Assembly: GCA_003599475.1 (NCBI GenBank)
Contig: QZKK01000017.1
Coordinates: 1 to 11,939 of the forward strand
Reading direction: 5' to 3'
DNA: 11,939 nucleotides
Source of the DNA: Desulfobacteraceae bacterium
GTDB taxonomy: Bacteria > Desulfobacterota > Desulfobacteria > Desulfobacterales > SURF-15
Shown: piece after piece, positions 421-11,939 of the stretch
Position numbering within the stretch: the first letter of the stretch is position 1
Layout of the letters: each line of letters starts with the position of its first letter
Translations under genes and position numbers: made by a program
Notes under the pieces: model-generated
What the model was told of the DNA's origin: nothing
What the model saw: the letters and a program-made list of their open reading frames with translations, nothing else
The model's database searches: none

Positions 421-491
421 CGCATACCTCGAAACATGTTGATTAACTGTTGTCAACATGTTATAATAATGTAGATTTATGGAGGTATGCG
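421..491. promoter_or_regulatory. nested perfect inverted repeats over promoter, RBS and start of the thioredoxin fusion gene
   Basis: The outer pair is CGCATACCTC (421-430) with its exact reverse complement GAGGTATGCG (482-491). The inner pair is AACATGTTGA (433-442) with TCAACATGTT (453-462). Each inner arm also holds the 8-base palindrome AACATGTT. The inner pair covers the -35 and spacer of the promoter, a typical repressor operator position. The right outer arm contains the Shine-Dalgarno GGAGG and ends immediately before the ATG at 492. A transcript starting near 474 would lack the left outer arm. Read-through RNA from upstream could pair both outer arms and hide the ribosome binding site. 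Which protein binds is unknown. Confidence 0.65.
439..467 (+). promoter_or_regulatory. sigma70-type promoter of the thiol-redox operon
   Basis: TTGATT (439-444) and TATAAT (462-467) are separated by exactly 17 bases, so the -10 box is perfect and the -35 box is good. Transcription would start near 474, giving a leader of about 18 bases before GGAGG-6-ATG at 492. The inner inverted repeat overlaps both boxes, so a repressor bound there would block the polymerase. Confidence 0.7.
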
Positions 492-1322
492 ATGCCTGAC
501 CAACCATTCATAACTGACCCAACTGCCACGGAAGCATCCTCGGGAAAACCTGCCGGAATGAAGAGATCCAACCAGGTTGCCTCAGTGGTGTTATTCCTTT
601 TTTCTCTATACATCATATCCGAAGCGCTTAAGATGAAATTGTCGGATCAATATGGGCCAGGTCCTGGTCTTTTTCCGCTGGGTTTGGGACTGATCCTGGC
701 TGTTTTATCCATCGCGTTATTTTTTGAATATTCAAGCGCAAAGAAAAAAGATAAAGCTTCACCCTTCCCTGAACAGCAGGCGCTTTTCTCAGTAGGCCTG
801 GTCGCGGTTGCTCTGGTTGCCGGCCCGCACCTGGGCTGGCTCGATAAAAATCAGGCGGGCTTTAAGGCCTTTCCGTGGCTGAAAACCATCGTGGGAACCG
901 CCTGCCTGGTTCTTGCGACCTTCTGGATCACCGCCTGGGCCATGCGCGGGCCGGGGATCGACTGGCATTCTTATTCGGAGCAAACCCTGCAGCAGGCGGC
1001 CGCACAGAAGAAACCGGTAATCATCGACTTTTACGCCGACTGGTGCACTCCGTGCAGGGAGTTGGAAGAAGTGACCTTCCACCACTCCGAGGTGGTCCGA
1101 CAGTCGCAAAAGGATTTCACCATGGTCAAAGTCGATGTGACCCGGGGCGGCAATTCAATTCATGAAGAGCTGTTGAAGCAATACGGTGTCAAGGGGGTGC
1201 CCACCATCGTATTTCTGGATGGGCAGGGAAAACAACGCGCCGATCTGCGCCTGGTGGATTTTCTGCCGCCCGATCAGTTTCTTATCCGTATGCACAATTT
1301 GAAAAAAATGACTGCACAATAA
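492..1322 (+). CDS. TctB-like membrane domain fused to a DsbD-type thioredoxin domain
   Basis: This 276-residue protein starts at the ATG 492, preceded by GGAGG six bases upstream; an upstream TTG at 450 lies inside the promoter and is unlikely. Residues 28-80 carry two membrane segments around a YGPGPGLFP motif, the signature of the TctB/DUF1468 subunit of tripartite tricarboxylate transporters. Two more hydrophobic stretches follow (about 97-112 and 130-150). Residues 158-275 form a thioredoxin fold with the active site WCTPC (184-188) and cis-Pro at 237, closest in style to the C-terminal domain of DsbD (IDFYADWC). No CcdA-like cysteine pair is visible in the membrane part, so electrons probably come from a partner, and the NapH-like ferredoxin next door is the obvious candidate. 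The likely role is a membrane-tethered thiol-disulfide exchanger. Domain calls are by motif; the partner is inferred. Confidence 0.8.
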   Translation: MPDQPFITDPTATEASSGKPAGMKRSNQVASVVLFLFSLYIISEALKMKLSDQYGPGPGLFPLGLGLILAVLSIALFFEYSSAKKKDKASPFPEQQALFSVGLVAVALVAGPHLGWLDKNQAGFKAFPWLKTIVGTACLVLATFWITAWAMRGPGIDWHSYSEQTLQQAAAQKKPVIIDFYADWCTPCRELEEVTFHHSEVVRQSQKDFTMVKVDVTRGGNSIHEELLKQYGVKGVPTIVFLDGQGKQRADLRLVDFLPPDQFLIRMHNLKKMTAQ

Positions 1323-1374: not shown

Positions 1375-2049
1375 ATGGATTCCACTTACACTATTTCAAA
1401 AGGCCGCAGGTGGCAACCGCTCTTAGGATTCATCTTGGTCTTACTGCTGGTGGACGGCTGGTTTTTCCCGCCTCTCGGCTATTTCATGATTTTTTGTACT
1501 GTGATGGCCATGGGTATCGGGATCGTCAAGGGAAGGCACTGGTGTGACTGGTTGTGTCCCCGGGGTAGCTTCTGGGACTGGTTTCTGAGCCGCGTCAGCC
1601 GCAATGTCAAGGTGCCCCGGGTTTTCCGCAGCGTGCCCTTTCGTCTGCTCTGGCTGGGTCTACTGATGACCGTGTTGACCATCAACCTGATACCTGTATG
1701 GAAAGATTTTTATCTGATGGGCAAACCCTTCGTGATGCTTCTTACGGTCACCACCTTGGTGGGCCTGATTCTGGGAGTAATCTACCATCCGCGGATCTGG
1801 TGCATGTTCTGTCCCATGGGGACCATGGCAAACTGGCTAGGACGAGGCAAAATGTCGCTGATCGTCGATGAGAAGTGCAGCAACTGCGGCGCATGTGAAA
1901 AAGTCTGCCGGATGCAGATTTACGCCGGCTCTTACCGGGAAGTCGGCGTAGCAACGCACGGCGACTGTCTTAAATGTTATTATTGTGTAGAAAAGTGCCC
2001 TGCAAAAGCTCTTGAGTTTAAACCGCAGCCAATGGACGAGGCGGCTTGA
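1375..2049 (+). CDS. NapH-like membrane ferredoxin (4Fe-4S binding protein)
   Basis: A 224-residue polytopic membrane protein with iron-sulfur motifs. AAGGAGG lies eight bases before the ATG. Hydrophobic segments lie at about 16-35, 36-50, 88-108 and 118-137. Two membrane-edge Cys motifs of the NapH/CcoG type are present, CDWLCP (57-62) and CMFCP (143-147). The C-terminal cytoplasmic part holds two ferredoxin motifs with Cys 168/171/174/178 and 198/201/204/208, each able to bind a 4Fe-4S cluster. NapH-type proteins move electrons between the quinone pool or cytoplasmic donors and a membrane or periplasmic partner. Next to a membrane thioredoxin domain and a small thioredoxin-fold protein, it plausibly feeds reductant into thiol chemistry. 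It is not part of a nap operon here, so calling it napH would overreach. The partner assignment is inferred from gene order. Confidence 0.85.
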   Translation: MDSTYTISKGRRWQPLLGFILVLLLVDGWFFPPLGYFMIFCTVMAMGIGIVKGRHWCDWLCPRGSFWDWFLSRVSRNVKVPRVFRSVPFRLLWLGLLMTVLTINLIPVWKDFYLMGKPFVMLLTVTTLVGLILGVIYHPRIWCMFCPMGTMANWLGRGKMSLIVDEKCSNCGACEKVCRMQIYAGSYREVGVATHGDCLKCYYCVEKCPAKALEFKPQPMDEAA

Positions 2050-2152
2050 GACGGAGACGCGTCAACGATGTTTTACCGCTGCGCGGACCGGCATAAACAG
2101 AACAAAAACCGTCCACCTGCGATGAGCCGCCGGATTAGAAAAGGAGAAGATC

Positions 2153-2473
2153 ATGCTCAAAGTCCGATTTTTTCTCAACGAGCCAAACGGCAAGCCCTGA
2201 AAGAATTTCAACCGGATGATGCCCAGGTTGGGCGAAAAATATCCCGTTGAAATCGATATTACCTCAAAACCCAAAGCCGAGTACCAGACCGATGAATACT
2301 TCGAGCTGGACTTGCCAGTCGCCCCTGCGGTCATGGTGGGCGATGAGATCGTGGTGGAAGGAACCGATGTGTCCGAACACGAGGTGGAGGTTTGCGTTCG
2401 CCGCCACCTGGGGCTGCCCGAACCCGAGCCTCAGAAAAAAGGAATGCTGAGCCGTCTATTCAAAAAATCATAG
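2153..2473 (+). CDS. small thioredoxin-fold protein with in-frame TGA, candidate selenoprotein (or nonsense-interrupted gene)
   Basis: AAGGAG (2141-2146) lies six bases before ATG 2153, which opens a frame interrupted by TGA at 2198-2200 and then continuing, in the same frame, to TAG 2471-2473. Read through, it encodes 106 residues with residue 16 as the TGA. Residues 3-8 (KVRFFL) make the first beta strand, the TGA sits at the strand-helix turn where thioredoxin folds carry their redox residue, PVEIDI (31-36) is a second strand, and VAPAVMVG (56-63) has the cis-Pro. A hairpin with a G-containing loop follows the TGA. If decoding stops at TGA, only 15 residues result. A start at ATG 2216 would give 85 residues without the first strand and with a poor ribosome binding site. 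I recognise the fold, not a named family. Selenocysteine is my leading reading, but a nonsense mutation is possible because the next gene is broken. Confidence 0.6.
2213..2246 (+). promoter_or_regulatory. SECIS-like hairpin after the in-frame TGA
   Basis: GCCC (2221-2224) pairs with GGGC (2230-2233) around a 5-base loop AGGTT whose second base is G. The loop begins 24 bases after the TGA. CGGAT (2213-2217) can pair with ATCCCG (2241-2246) with one bulged C, extending the helix below an internal loop. Bacterial SECIS elements are known to lie just downstream of the UGA with a short stem and a G early in the apical loop, as in the AGGU loop of E. coli fdhF. The fit is qualitative, and short stems of this kind also arise by chance. 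Confidence 0.45.
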
Positions 2474-2482
2474 GGTATCGTC

Positions 2483-2961
2483 ATGCAAGCCGATGACATG
2501 AAAAAAAGTGCCCTGGTCAAGATATTCATCCTCGTCCTGTTCATCGCGGTGGCGATTTATCTGGTCCGTTTTTCGCCTGCGAAACAGTATCTCGCGGCTG
2601 GACAGCTTGGGCTATTTTTGCAGTCCGCCGGCATCTGGGCACCATGGTGTTCGTGATCATTTATGCGGCCGGTGTGTGCCTTTTTCTTCCAGGCACACTC
2701 CTGACGGCCTTGGGAGCCGCCCTCTTCGGACCGTATCGGGGTTTCCTGTACGTCTGGCTGGGCGCCATGCTGGGCGCAAGCTTCGCCTTTTTGATTTTTA
2801 CCTTCTTTTTGGGGACGATAAAGGATGTCTGGACCGGCGGCCGGTGGGTGGAACTTTTGAGTCTAAAGGTCTTTTTATCGCTTGCCCTTTTTATCTTTTC
2901 CTTTTTCATTCCCAAGCTTCTGAAAATGGCGCGGGCGTCAAAACAAGCCGGAACCGCTTGA
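2483..2961 (+). pseudogene. TVP38/TMEM64 (DedA-like) membrane protein gene, frameshifted and internally deleted
   Basis: Translation from ATG 2483 (AGGG seven bases upstream) gives a membrane segment (KIFILVLFIAVAIYLV) and family-like sequence up to SAGIWAP, then hits TGA at 2651-2653. The family sequence resumes at once in another frame from ATG 2644 (MVFVIIYAAGVCLFLPGTLL), as if one base, probably a C in CACCATG, were lost around 2640-2644. The second frame keeps the TVP38 hallmark LFLPGTLLTALGAALFGP. It then jumps from GASFAFL directly to IFTFFLGTIKD, which I recognise as the C-terminal end of the family, so roughly 80 central residues appear missing. Intact proteins are usually about 200-250 residues; here the parts sum to about 160. 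TVP38/DedA proteins are integral membrane proteins, some acting as lipid scramblases. Loss of function is likely. A sequencing error could explain the frameshift but not the deletion. Confidence 0.65.
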
Positions 2962-5617: not shown

Positions 5618-5651
5618 AAAAAGAGATGCTATTTCTTCTTTTCCATCTCTT
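5616..5651 (-). terminator. intrinsic terminator overlapping the end of the ArsR gene
   Basis: Read on the - strand, AAGAGATG and CATCTCTT (5651-5644 and 5628-5621) form an 8-base-pair stem with a 15-base loop holding the ArsR stop codon, and a run of seven T (5622-5616) follows, its first two bases being part of the stem. The stem is AT-rich, so it is moderate in strength. It separates arsR from the downstream enzyme gene, which has its own promoter. Confidence 0.5.
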
Positions 5652-6045
5652 CGAGCCTGCACCGTACGCTGTTGAGCTCTCGCAGAAGCTCTTTTTCCCA
5701 TTTTTTGAGCAGGGAAACCTTATCGTCGGCTTTTTCCAGCTCCGCCTCGCGGAATTTTCCGGTTCCCCGGCATCCGCAGGTGCACACCCTGGAAAGCAGC
5801 TCCTGGCAGCCTTCCAGCGCCTCTGCGTTTATCTCATAGGGGATCCAGTAACCCTGCCGTTCGCTTCGCACCAGATCCGCATACCTGAGGATTTTGAGGT
5901 GCTGCGAAACCGCGGAAGCGGTAATCCCCAGCGCCTGCGACAGTTCGTTTACTCCCAGAGGACCCCTTTCTTTCAAGAGCTCGATGATCTGGATCCGGGT
6001 CTCCACCCCGAGGATCTTGAATAATTCCGCCTGGCTGATCACCAT
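5629..6045 (-). CDS. ArsR-family transcriptional repressor
   Basis: A winged helix-turn-helix regulator of 138 residues when started at ATG 6045; AAGGA lies about ten bases upstream. A GTG three codons earlier (6054) is only one base from that site and is less likely. Residues 4-75 form the ArsR domain: LGVETRIQIIELL, the helix-turn-helix VNELSQALGITASAVSQHLKIL with the recognition helix around ASAVSQHL, then the wing. After it comes CTCGC (about residues 89-93), which could sense a metal or a reactive sulfur species, and a charged coiled-coil-like C-terminus (about 100-138), unusual for the shortest ArsR proteins. It probably represses itself and the acyl-CoA dehydrogenase-like gene through two near-identical operators. 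The ligand is unknown; the arsenic sensors' site is not clearly matched. Confidence 0.85.
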   Translation of the reverse strand: MVISQAELFKILGVETRIQIIELLKERGPLGVNELSQALGITASAVSQHLKILRYADLVRSERQGYWIPYEINAEALEGCQELLSRVCTCGCRGTGKFREAELEKADDKVSLLKKWEKELLRELNSVRCRLEEMEKKK

Positions 6046-6067
6046 TGGGCGCACGTCCTTTTTCTAT

Positions 6068-9578: not shown

Positions 9579-10532
9579 ATGACACTCGACTTCTATCGTA
9601 TGCTTCGCTTGTTTAAATTTCATGGCGGTCCGAAGTCCTGGATCGGAGCGATGATGCTCTGTACCCTGCTGATGCCTGTTTCCGCAGCGGCGGATGATAT
9701 AGCGACTTTAGAAAAAAGGTACCCCGGCCTGGCATCCGGGGTACTGAAATCCTCAAAACTGATTGAGATGCCTTCCAGCACGCTGCTTTCGGCTGACGGG
9801 TTCGAGATTCCAAAATCCTGGGTGGAAGAGACGGTGACTCGGCTTCCGGCGGAGATGCGCAAACAGGCCGAAGCGGGCCTCCTGTTTTTCCTGGAACAGG
9901 AGGTTACGAAAAAGGTGATTGTGCGGGACGCAAAGGCCGCCGGCATCCGATCGGAAGGCATGACCGATGATGAGATTCTCCAATCCTATCTGAGCCAGAG
10001 AGTCTCCAGGCTTACGGTATCGGATGCAGAGACAAAGGCTTTTTACGATTCCAACAAGGAGCTTGCGGGCGGGTTGCCTTTTGACCGGGTAAAGGAGAGC
10101 ATACATGGCTTCCTGATGCAGCAGAAGCAGCAGGATGCGGTCTCCGGTTACGTAAAAAACCTCGAAAACCTCAAAGACATCCGGATCGACGGGGAGTGGG
10201 TGGAAAAACAGTACGCTCTTGCCATCGACAATCCGGTCGATCGGGCTCGACGCTCCGGGAAGCCGAGCATGGTGGAATTCGGGGCCTCCGGCTGCGTTCC
10301 CTGCGACATGATGCAGCCGATCCTGGATACGCTGAAAAAGACCCATGCCGGCCGATTGAACGTGGTCTTTGTAAACGTACGGGAAGACCAGGTCCTCGGC
10401 GCCCGCTTCGGCATCCTGTCCATTCCGGTCCAGGCCTTCTATGATGAATCCGGAAAAGAGGTCTTCCGCCATACCGGCTTTTTCGCGGAATCCGAGATCA
10501 ACAAAAAACTTGCCGAGATGGGGGTTCGATAG
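9579..10532 (+). CDS. exported SurA-like chaperone domain fused to thioredoxin
   Basis: A 317-residue protein, ATG 9579 with GAGAGG just upstream. A signal-like hydrophobic segment (residues 21-36, ending VSAAADD) suggests export. Residues about 40-205 resemble the helical non-catalytic part of SurA/PpiC-type foldases. The segment EMRKQAEAGLLFFLEQEVTKKVIVRDAKAAGI (92-123) is the typical long helix pair, and FDRVKESIHGFLMQQKQQDAVSGYV (168-192) is the typical C-terminal helix. The rotamase domain normally between them is missing. Residues 227-315 form a thioredoxin domain with GCVPC (238-242) and cis-Pro at 283. It probably binds and reduces, or passes electrons to, unfolded or thiol-bearing proteins outside the cytoplasm. 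It is first in an operon with a rhodanese 13 bases downstream. Confidence 0.8.
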   Translation: MTLDFYRMLRLFKFHGGPKSWIGAMMLCTLLMPVSAAADDIATLEKRYPGLASGVLKSSKLIEMPSSTLLSADGFEIPKSWVEETVTRLPAEMRKQAEAGLLFFLEQEVTKKVIVRDAKAAGIRSEGMTDDEILQSYLSQRVSRLTVSDAETKAFYDSNKELAGGLPFDRVKESIHGFLMQQKQQDAVSGYVKNLENLKDIRIDGEWVEKQYALAIDNPVDRARRSGKPSMVEFGASGCVPCDMMQPILDTLKKTHAGRLNVVFVNVREDQVLGARFGILSIPVQAFYDESGKEVFRHTGFFAESEINKKLAEMGVR

Positions 10533-10545
10533 CAGAGACGGCGCC

Positions 10546-11061
10546 ATGCCCTTGAAATCCTACCGTATATTGAAGAAGCCTGGAAAATGGAAAGCCGCAC
10601 TGGTGCAAACCGCAGTCATCCTTGCTGTTGCCGCCGTGCTGGGGGTAGCCGTAAATGCCGCGCGGAGAGACGGAATTGCGCTGGTGGGAGACTGGTCCGC
10701 CGAATCCAGGCTGAGCACCCCCTCCGGAGAGAGTCTCATGGTAACCCTTTCCGATGCCGAAAGAATGTTTCTGGATAAATCCGCCGTGTTTATGGATGCC
10801 CGATCGAAGGAGGAATATGAGGCCGGCCATATCGCAGGGGCGGTCAGTCTCCCCTGGCAAGAGGTCCAGCAGCGCTTCACGGAGGTCGCGGAGCGAATCC
10901 CTCCGGATCGTCCTGTCATTACATACTGCGACGGAGAAAGCTGCGCCCTCAGCAAAGATCTGGCGTTGTTCCTCAAAGAGATGGGGTATGCGGAGGTCCA
11001 CATTCTGGTAAACGGCTGGACCCGGTGGAAAGAGGCGGTCCTCCCGGTCGAAGCCGGATGA
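10546..11061 (+). CDS. membrane-anchored rhodanese-like protein
   Basis: I start at ATG 10546, 13 bases after the upstream stop; a longer in-frame version would overlap the thioredoxin gene. The 171 residues have one N-terminal membrane segment (about 17-38) and a rhodanese domain (about 66-168). Domain signs are VFMDARSKEEYEAGHIAGAVSLPW (81-104) with the DAR motif, the active-site Cys128 in TYCDGESCALS, and the terminal NGWTRWKEA. Rhodaneses carry sulfane sulfur on this Cys. The six-residue loop CDGESC holds a second Cys (133), which could form a disulfide or hand sulfur on. With an exported thioredoxin before it and a MauE/DoxX protein after it, it probably acts on persulfides or thiosulfate at the membrane's outer face. 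The upstream ribosome site is weak, consistent with translational coupling. Confidence 0.85.
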   Translation: MPLKSYRILKKPGKWKAALVQTAVILAVAAVLGVAVNAARRDGIALVGDWSAESRLSTPSGESLMVTLSDAERMFLDKSAVFMDARSKEEYEAGHIAGAVSLPWQEVQQRFTEVAERIPPDRPVITYCDGESCALSKDLALFLKEMGYAEVHILVNGWTRWKEAVLPVEAG

Positions 11062-11070
11062 GGTTTCATG

Positions 11071-11082
11071 CGATCTAGATCG
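11071..11082. repeat. perfect 12-base palindrome
   Basis: CGATCTAGATCG lies in the 90-base gap between the rhodanese and MauE/DoxX genes and is followed by an A/T-rich run (AAATTTTTT, 11087-11095). It could be a protein-binding site; a hairpin would need an open loop, so it is not a standard terminator. Confidence 0.3.
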
Positions 11083-11151
11083 AGGCAAATTTTTTGAATG
11101 CAATCTCCTGAGAAAACGAATTCCGGATCCGCAAAAGAAGGATCCCGTTTC

Positions 11152-11939
11152 ATGCATCGATTCTTGCGTATCGGCGCACGCATTGTTTTAGGCGGTGTTT
11201 TTTTCTATGCCGGTTTCGACAAGGTTTTGCATCCGGCTGCTTTTGCGGAGGCGGTTTACAACTATCAAATTCTGCCGGATTTTCTCGTGAACCTGACAGC
11301 CGTCATTTTGCCGTGGCTGGAGCTGACTTTGGGCGTTTTGCTGATTTCCGGGATCTGGATCCTGGGGAGTGCGGCACTCGGCACGCTGCTGCTGGCGATC
11401 TTCATGGGAGCAATGGTATTCAATCTGGCCAGGGGACTGGATATCGACTGCGGGTGTTTCTCTTCATCGGCTTCAGGAGACCCTTTGACCCTCCGGACGA
11501 TTTTGCGGGATGCCGTATTTTTGCTGACGGCGGTTTACCTGCTGATCGCCGCTGTCACTGCCGGAGGAACGCTTGGCCTCCATCATTATTGGCGCAGTTT
11601 TATTTTCGTTGTTTACCTGAACGATCAAGAAGTGGGACTGGTCCGGGATGCCGGGGAAATCGAAAGGTTCATTGCCGACTTGATGGAGCGCTGCGGCTCT
11701 CTTTACGGGATGAAGGTAGAACCGGAACAGCAAATAGCGCTGCTCAGGGAATACCGGCCCGGGTGTGAAGAAGATGCCGTCAAGGCCAAGGAGGCCCTGC
11801 GCGAAAAAATTACACTCGTTACCGGCGCCTACATGGTGACGGTGGATGCGGTGCCGGTGCTGCCTGTGGCTTCTGAAGAAGATATCGCGACGATTATCGG
11901 GCTGTTGAGCAGTGCTTATGTCCGTACAGCCGAGCATAT
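11152..11939 (+). CDS. MauE/DoxX-type membrane protein fused in frame to an M23-peptidase N-terminal-like domain (partial, runs off the window)
   Basis: ATG 11152 follows AAGAAGGA by nine bases; an in-frame ATG at 11098 would add 18 residues with a poorer site. Residues 5-135 form a four-helix MauE/DoxX membrane domain: IVLGGVFFYAGFDKVLHP, ILPWLELTLGVLLISG, and the redox-linked DIDCGCF (97-103). Usual family members end soon after, at about 140-150 residues. Here the frame continues without stop to the window end (at least 262 codons). HHYWRSFIFVVYLNDQEVGLV and the following alternating strand/helix residues, ending in VTVDAVPVLPVASEEDIATII, resemble the N-terminal region of cell-wall M23 metallopeptidases. 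The peptidase active site would lie beyond the window, so the fusion and its function are unconfirmed. The membrane half fits the rhodanese/thioredoxin operon. Confidence 0.7.
   Translation, partial: MHRFLRIGARIVLGGVFFYAGFDKVLHPAAFAEAVYNYQILPDFLVNLTAVILPWLELTLGVLLISGIWILGSAALGTLLLAIFMGAMVFNLARGLDIDCGCFSSSASGDPLTLRTILRDAVFLLTAVYLLIAAVTAGGTLGLHHYWRSFIFVVYLNDQEVGLVRDAGEIERFIADLMERCGSLYGMKVEPEQQIALLREYRPGCEEDAVKAKEALREKITLVTGAYMVTVDAVPVLPVASEEDIATIIGLLSSAYVRTAEH

What the first reader, a model, noticed from the sequence alone, without database searches (positions are those of the whole stretch)
2153..2473. Candidate selenocysteine in a small thioredoxin-fold protein of a membrane redox operon
An in-frame TGA (2198-2200) lies exactly where the redox residue of a thioredoxin fold belongs. 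A well-formed ribosome binding site and the first beta strand lie before it, and the rest of the fold, including the cis-Pro, follows in the same frame. A G-loop hairpin starts 21 bases after the TGA, with its loop 24 bases after it. The motif would be G-K-P-U without the usual partner Cys, which I do not recall as a described selenoprotein type. Its neighbours supply thiol and electron-transfer functions. The counter-reading is a nonsense mutation, because the next gene is decayed.
Basis: partly seen in the sequence, partly recalled or inferred. Interest (0 to 1): 0.82.

Follow-up and report, generated by a model that had tools for sequence, protein, structure and literature searches.

The report
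Known selenoprotein TsoC, trimmed operon
The suspected extra amino acid is almost certainly real: this small redox protein very likely carries selenocysteine, but it belongs to a selenoprotein family (TsoC) that others have already named, here sitting in a partly broken copy of its usual gene cluster.

Summary
An in-frame TGA (2198-2200) is codon 16 of a 106-aa frame (2153-2473) with a predicted thioredoxin fold. It is very unlikely to be a nonsense mutation: the frame scores 149.7 bits (cut-off 45) against NCBIfam NF045708, 'NEPxGxxU motif selenoprotein TsoC'. Of 66 homologous loci, 62 span residue 16 and all 62 have TGA there. The hairpin just after it is conserved in 63 rows, with codon choice beyond what the protein needs (Arg25 is AGG in 54 of 54; background 10-13%). 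Of 28 near-full-length database proteins read, six have Cys at 16, and five of those six have changed the hairpin-coding residues. selA matches in 18 of 19 TsoC genomes of a phylum draw, but also in 273 of all 297. The window's own genome is not held.

What is unusual is local: no TsoA, TsoB cut to its C-terminal part and fused to a TctB-like N-terminus, the next gene broken, TsoC intact. That may be recent decay or an assembly join.

The parts
2153..2473 (+). tsoC, 106-aa selenoprotein with predicted thioredoxin fold, Sec at residue 16 (NEPNGKPU)
   Evidence: NF045708 149.7 bits, cut-off 45; TGA in 62 of 62 spanning loci of 66; AlphaFold2 fold order
2198..2200 (+). UGA read as selenocysteine (inferred)
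2220..2234 (+). bacterial SECIS-like hairpin inside the coding sequence: GCCCA-GGU-UGGGC (2221-2233) plus a U-G closing pair (2220, 2234)
   Evidence: six pairs counted over 63 rows: 97.6% of 378 cells paired, slid controls 32.0-48.7%; AGG at Arg25 in 54 of 54 Arg rows
2140..2146 (+). Shine-Dalgarno-like AAAGGAG before the ATG at 2153
   Evidence: read in the sequence
492..1322 (+). chimera: TctB-like N-terminus joined to the C-terminal membrane segment and thioredoxin domain (WCTPC) of TsoB; the double-Sec rhodanese and most of the DsbD-like core are absent
   Evidence: TsoB model positions 402-571 of 572 only; TctB PF07331 34.9 bits, cut-off 29.1; 97% identity to a relative's TsoB (P0123) over 59% of the chimera
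1375..2049 (+). NapH-like membrane 4Fe-4S ferredoxin protein between the TsoB remnant and TsoC
   Evidence: TIGR02163 57.3 bits, below its cut-off 213.05; 72% identical gene between TsoB and TsoC in L031, only weak matches (23-36%) in three other loci
2483..2961 (+). broken VTT-domain gene: the starting frame ends at a stop at 2654-2656, the rest continues in another frame from about 2644, and 73 residues present in relatives are missing
   Evidence: 219 nt missing against L003, L008, L035 and L042
3012..3827 (+). fatty-acid-hydroxylase family gene that also follows tsoC in some relatives (L026, L001, L008, L035, L042 and others)
   Evidence: PF04116 90.8 bits; 77% identity in L026
433..467 (+). 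consensus-like promoter TTGATT-17-TATAAT overlapping the inverted repeat AACATGTTGA/TCAACATGTT, upstream of the chimera
   Evidence: consensus match only (5 promoter-like sites in 1-2600, 2.3 expected)

Best explanation
The gene is tsoC, a member of the published TsoC selenoprotein family. Its UGA at codon 16 is decoded as selenocysteine with the help of the hairpin that starts 21 nt downstream inside the gene. The product is a small, probably cytoplasmic protein with a thioredoxin fold and Sec at the N-terminus of the first helix (G-K-P-U). It most likely works as a one-selenol redox carrier that forms mixed selenenyl-sulfide bonds with partner thiols. In the full Tso operon the partner is plausibly the DsbD/rhodanese selenoprotein TsoB. 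Shown here: the family, the conserved UGA, the hairpin conservation and the predicted fold. Inferred: actual Sec insertion, location, mechanism and partner. In this window the operon is trimmed (no TsoA, TsoB reduced to a chimeric C-terminal part, VTT gene broken).
For: NF045708 149.7 bits against cut-off 45. TGA at residue 16 in 62 of 62 loci that span it, of 66 found. In a phylum draw all 26 over-cut-off matches, in 19 of 297 genomes, hold exactly one TGA (positions not checked one by one). In an order draw, 69 of the 70 match rows that span residue 16 (of 80 rows) list a TGA (my reading of its table). Hairpin: 97.6% of 378 cells paired, slid controls 32.0-48.7%. Codons: Arg25 AGG in 54 of 54 against 13.3% and 10.1% background; Leu26 TTG/CTG in 63 of 63; Pro24 CCC in 62 of 63. 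Of 28 near-full-length database proteins, 21 have W (UGA read as Trp, inferred), 6 Cys and 1 Arg at residue 16. The [RGS]-L-[GA] hairpin code is kept in 21 of 21 W forms but in only 1 of 6 Cys forms. A distant homologue (G054) has TGC at residue 16 in a genome with no selA match and no selB over cut-off. selA matches in 18 of 19 TsoC genomes. The closest relative with a held genome (G001, TsoC 87% identical) has selA and selB over cut-off. dN 0.061, dS 0.423 for TsoC against that relative.
Against: The window's own genome is not held, so its sel genes are untested. selA is near-universal in the phylum draw (273 of 297 match, 269 over cut-off), so co-occurrence says little, and one TsoC genome (G025) has no selA match. 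Two-sided covariation in the hairpin is thin: 2 cells in 1 pair, and 77 of 500 shuffles reach that pair count. tRNA-Sec exceeds the Rfam cut-off in 41 of 50 TsoC-locus genomes and 8 of 10 genomes with strong TsoC matches, and not in G001 or G006. selB exceeds its cut-off in 5 of 6 genomes and in 1 of 5 (of the other four, G025, G615 and G006 carry TsoC); genome completeness is not told. The P0016 form has Arg at residue 16 with the hairpin-coding residues kept. The DNA behind the Cys forms was not seen. The neighbours TsoB and VTT are broken, so local decay is real. One TsoC copy elsewhere has TAA at codon 16.
Confidence: 0.93

Rival explanations
1. The TGA is an ordinary stop created by a nonsense mutation in a decaying operon, and the downstream 85-aa frame is a relic.
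For: The adjacent VTT gene is frameshifted and internally deleted and TsoB is truncated. A TAA at the same codon in G615 shows that such decay happens.
Against: The same TGA is in all 62 spanning loci, and all 26 over-cut-off matches of the phylum draw hold one TGA. The hairpin is intact, and dN/dS for TsoC against L026 is about 0.14.
Confidence: 0.03
2. Translation starts at the internal ATG 2216 and makes an 85-aa protein; the upstream frame is not translated.
For: Gene callers report the 85-aa form (P0003 and many other 81-86-aa hits).
Against: The first 15 codons are strongly conserved: N9, P11, G13, P15 in 63 of 63 rows. They encode the first strand of the predicted fold, and a ribosome-binding site precedes ATG 2153. 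Cys-16 forms are called full length.
Confidence: 0.02
3. The trimmed operon in this contig is partly an assembly artefact: the TctB/TsoB join and the VTT defects are mis-joins or errors in the contig. (This concerns the surroundings, and can hold together with the best explanation.)
For: Among the 120 listed homologues (of 1883) the TctB domain appears only in P0122, the window's own protein. A 97%-identical TsoB without the TctB part exists on another contig.
Against: The chimera is one open frame with an RBS-like GGAGG before its ATG and a promoter-like site upstream, which a random join need not give. Reads are not available.
Confidence: 0.4

Closest known systems
TsoC, NCBIfam NF045708 (NEPxGxxU motif selenoprotein), Tso operon
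   Same: Over the cut-off, same motif, same Sec position, same hairpin as relatives, neighbouring TsoB remnant
   Different: TsoA is not in the window and TsoB is cut to its C-terminal part; the widely conserved Cys83 (54 of 63 rows) is Arg here, with a Cys at 81
Selenoprotein W-related proteins (2fa8, 2p0g)
Thioredoxins
   Same: Thioredoxin-fold order and a cis-Pro-like site
   Different: No CxxC; a single Sec without the usual partner
MbdU, NF045648 (metal-binding double selenoprotein, DUF5714)
   Different: Not among the hits shown for the 14 window proteins scanned; L008 was the only one of the loci searched with a match, so the link is only suggestive

Membership tests
TsoC (NF045708) | Score over the curated cut-off (45 bits) | tested here: met
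   149.7 bits, profile positions 1-86 of 87
TsoC (NF045708) | NEPxGxxU motif with in-frame UGA | tested here: met
   NEPNGKPU at residues 9-16
TsoC (NF045708) | SECIS-like hairpin shortly after the UGA | tested here: met
   in silico only
TsoC (NF045708) | Selenium actually present in the protein | not testable with these tools
   needs 75Se labelling or mass spectrometry
TsoC (NF045708) | Host has selA, selB, selC, selD | tested here: inconclusive
   window genome not held; relatives: selA match in 18 of 19 TsoC genomes, tRNA-Sec over cut-off in 41 of 50 and 8 of 10, selB over cut-off in 5 of 6 and 1 of 5; selD not tested
Complete Tso three-selenoprotein operon | TsoA (NF045695) present | tested here: not met
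   four TsoA frames against the window by tblastn: best E 0.18; the same queries hit 42 of 79 loci at 1e-10, an upper figure since the queries carry extra open frame. It may lie elsewhere in the genome. 7 of 8 relatives' genomes have NF045695, G001 does not
Complete Tso three-selenoprotein operon | TsoB (NF045694, cut-off 805) with double-Sec rhodanese | tested here: not met
   258.2 bits, model positions 402-571 only; L026 TsoB scores 978.8
Thioredoxin fold | b-a-b-a-b-b-a order with the redox residue before helix 1 and a Pro before strand 3 | tested here: met
Selenoprotein W / Rdx | CxxU or CxxC motif (recalled) | tested here: not met
   GKPU

The most novel reading that the evidence does not exclude
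The window catches a Tso operon being rewired, not just decaying. TsoC has outlived TsoA and the double-Sec rhodanese/DsbD part of TsoB, and now works with the leftover membrane-anchored TsoB thioredoxin domain (on a TctB-derived anchor and under its promoter) and a NapH-like ferredoxin. TsoC would then have a function separable from the other two selenoproteins. The Cys-16 TsoC domain fused to an MbdU-like domain in a genome without detectable selA (G054) points the same way.
Probability: 0.15. Interest if true: 0.5.

Novelty: new member of a known kind. Interest (0 to 1): 0.32.

Why it matters
It adds a clear member to a recently named selenoprotein family whose function is not described in the review passages that I read. 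It also adds comparative evidence that I did not see in those passages: hairpin-driven codon choice, Cys-16 forms most of which have changed the hairpin-coding residues, a natural TAA at the Sec codon, and a Cys-16 TsoC domain fused to an MbdU-like protein. The trimmed locus, if not an assembly error, offers a natural test of whether TsoC works without TsoA and intact TsoB.

Tried and rejected
Nonsense mutation: rejected because TGA stands at this codon in 62 of 62 spanning loci.

Internal start at ATG 2216: rejected because the first 15 codons are conserved and form strand 1.

SECIS support from folding energy alone: weak, z -0.74, -1.00 and -3.05 for three cuts, so I rely on conservation. 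Rfam at gathering thresholds gave no match in the window.

Co-occurrence with selA as proof: uninformative, since selA matches in 273 of 297 phylum genomes.

SelW membership: not claimed, because the fold match is tied with thioredoxins and the motif differs.

The window's ArsR (5629-6054) as TsoR (NF045707): not supported, 34.2 bits against cut-off 115.

Literature: one search found one paper for 'three selenoprotein operon', 'tso operon' or 'NEPxGxxU'; searches gave no other paper that I used (listings only). The primary paper (Haft and Tolstoy 2025, mSystems) is not held; I know it only from the review's table and reference list.

A slip mended: and I read the start of the VTT gene one base off; one search gives the right frame (from 2483). 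The internal loss is 73 residues, not about 60 as I first noted.

Full report
What is there. Window 2153-2473 reads as a 106-residue frame with one TGA, at codon 16. Ordinary ORF calling sees only the last 85 residues, from ATG 2216. NCBIfam names the read-through frame: NF045708, 'NEPxGxxU motif selenoprotein TsoC', 149.7 bits against a cut-off of 45. A 2026 review (PMC13188914; I read the passages and the section on operons) lists TsoC as GxxU with one Sec and describes the Tso 'three selenoprotein operon', citing Haft and Tolstoy 2025, which is not held here. The type is therefore known.

Is the TGA conserved? One scan of genome contigs gave 66 loci, most of them with Desulfobacterota or Deltaproteobacteria titles and two with Nitrospira-type titles (L019, L036). 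Of the 66, 62 span residue 16 and all 62 have TGA there; the other four are partial. Thirteen loci hold a second TsoC-like frame, and all 13 also have TGA at that codon. In a draw of 297 phylum genomes, 20 had a match, 19 of them over the cut-off. All 26 over-cut-off matches hold exactly one TGA (positions not checked one by one); the one weak match, G054, has no stop. In a draw of 389 genomes of the order, 63 had a match. By my reading of the table 70 of 80 rows span residue 16, and 69 of them list a TGA, a few with a further stop. The exception, G615 contig 268, has TAA at codon 16 with a GCCCGGGCUGGGC hairpin still in place; the same genome has a second copy with a stop at that codon that one search counts as TGA.

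The hairpin. GCCCA-GGU-UGGGC begins 21 nt after the UGA (2221-2233). Over 63 aligned rows (window plus 62) and six pairs, 97.6% of 378 cells pair, against 32.0-48.7% when the partners are slid. Two-sided changes are few (2 cells, L044 and L060, in one pair; 77 of 500 shuffles reach one such pair). Codon choice is the stronger sign: Arg25 is AGG in 54 of 54 Arg rows, while AGG makes up 174 of 1311 Arg codons in the longest upstream ORFs and 16 of 158 in the rest of TsoC; Pro24 is CCC in 62 of 63; Leu26 is TTG or CTG in 63 of 63. The rows are related, so I give no probability. Folding energy alone is not convincing.

Cysteine forms. Of the 28 database proteins that cover 93% or more of the query (of 120 listed and 3795 found), residue 16 is W in 21, C in 6 and R in 1. 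W is what a UGA-as-Trp gene caller would write (inferred). The hairpin-coding residues [RGS]-L-[GA] are kept in 21 of 21 W forms and in the R form, but in only 1 of 6 Cys forms (Fisher p 7e-5 for W against C, not corrected for relatedness). This is the pattern expected when the hairpin is no longer needed; the DNA behind these six was not available. G054 had no selA match and no selB over cut-off, but its completeness is unknown.

Sec machinery. No genome is held for the window. Among relatives, selA matches in 18 of the 19 genomes with TsoC over cut-off (G025 is the miss), but also in 273 of all 297 (269 over cut-off), so this is necessary but not telling. tRNA-Sec exceeds the Rfam cut-off in 41 of 50 TsoC-locus genomes (50 of the 66 loci were sent) and in 8 of 10 genomes with strong TsoC matches. 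selB is over cut-off in 5 of 6 genomes and in 1 of 5 in a second set, where G025, G615 and G006 carry TsoC without it; G025 and G615 show short C-terminal selB matches, as fragmented assemblies would. G001, the closest relative with a held genome (TsoC 87% identical), has selA and selB but no tRNA-Sec over cut-off.

The local operon. The window keeps only the C-terminal part of TsoB (model positions 402-571 of 572), fused to a TctB-like N-terminus. A relative's TsoB of 454 called residues (P0123) is 97% identical over the shared part. Among 120 listed homologues (of 1883) the TctB domain occurs only in the window's own protein. The VTT gene starts at 2483 in a frame that stops at 2654-2656, continues in another frame, and lacks 73 residues that L003, L008, L035 and L042 have. 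TsoA is not found in the window (best E 0.18 for four TsoA frames); G001 also lacks it, while 7 of 8 relatives' genomes have it. TsoC itself shows dN 0.061 and dS 0.423 against L026 over its first 85 codons, so the protein was under constraint until recently. A promoter-like site (10 of 12 matches) overlapping an inverted repeat lies before the chimera. Whether the join is real or an assembly error cannot be told without reads.

Verdict. The selenocysteine reading is right with high confidence. The novelty claim is not: it is a new member of the TsoC family in an unusual, trimmed setting.

Noticed in passing
L077 (G615 contig 268), tsoC codon 16: A TsoC copy with TAA instead of TGA at the Sec codon and the hairpin still present; a second copy in the same genome has a stop at that codon counted as TGA.
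   Followed up: partly
L079:216-1217 (minus strand; G054): 334-aa protein with a Cys-16 TsoC-like domain fused to a DUF5714/MbdU-like domain, in a genome with no selA match; the protein search with its N-terminal domain returned only its own cluster, P0242.
   Followed up: partly
L001, L004, L013-L015, L024, L031, L032, L034, L035, L043, L061: Second TsoC-like frames near tsoC, many with N-D/E-P-x-G-x-T-U, all with TGA at the same codon.
   Followed up: partly
L059:4118-9039 and L062: Tso neighbourhoods with a rhodanese and MauE pair, an ArsR-rhodanese fusion and an ArsM-like methyltransferase containing an in-frame TGA.
   Followed up: partly
window 9579-11937: Thioredoxin-domain protein, rhodanese and MauE/DoxX genes in a row; the rhodanese and MauE pair resembles that of L059 and L062 (31-40% identity).
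   Followed up: partly
window 433-467: Inverted repeat AACATGTTGA/TCAACATGTT overlapping a promoter-like TTGATT-17-TATAAT site, a possible operator.
   Followed up: partly
window 2483-2961: The VTT gene has lost 219 nt in frame; what remains reads on across the gap, next to a separate frameshift.
   Followed up: partly
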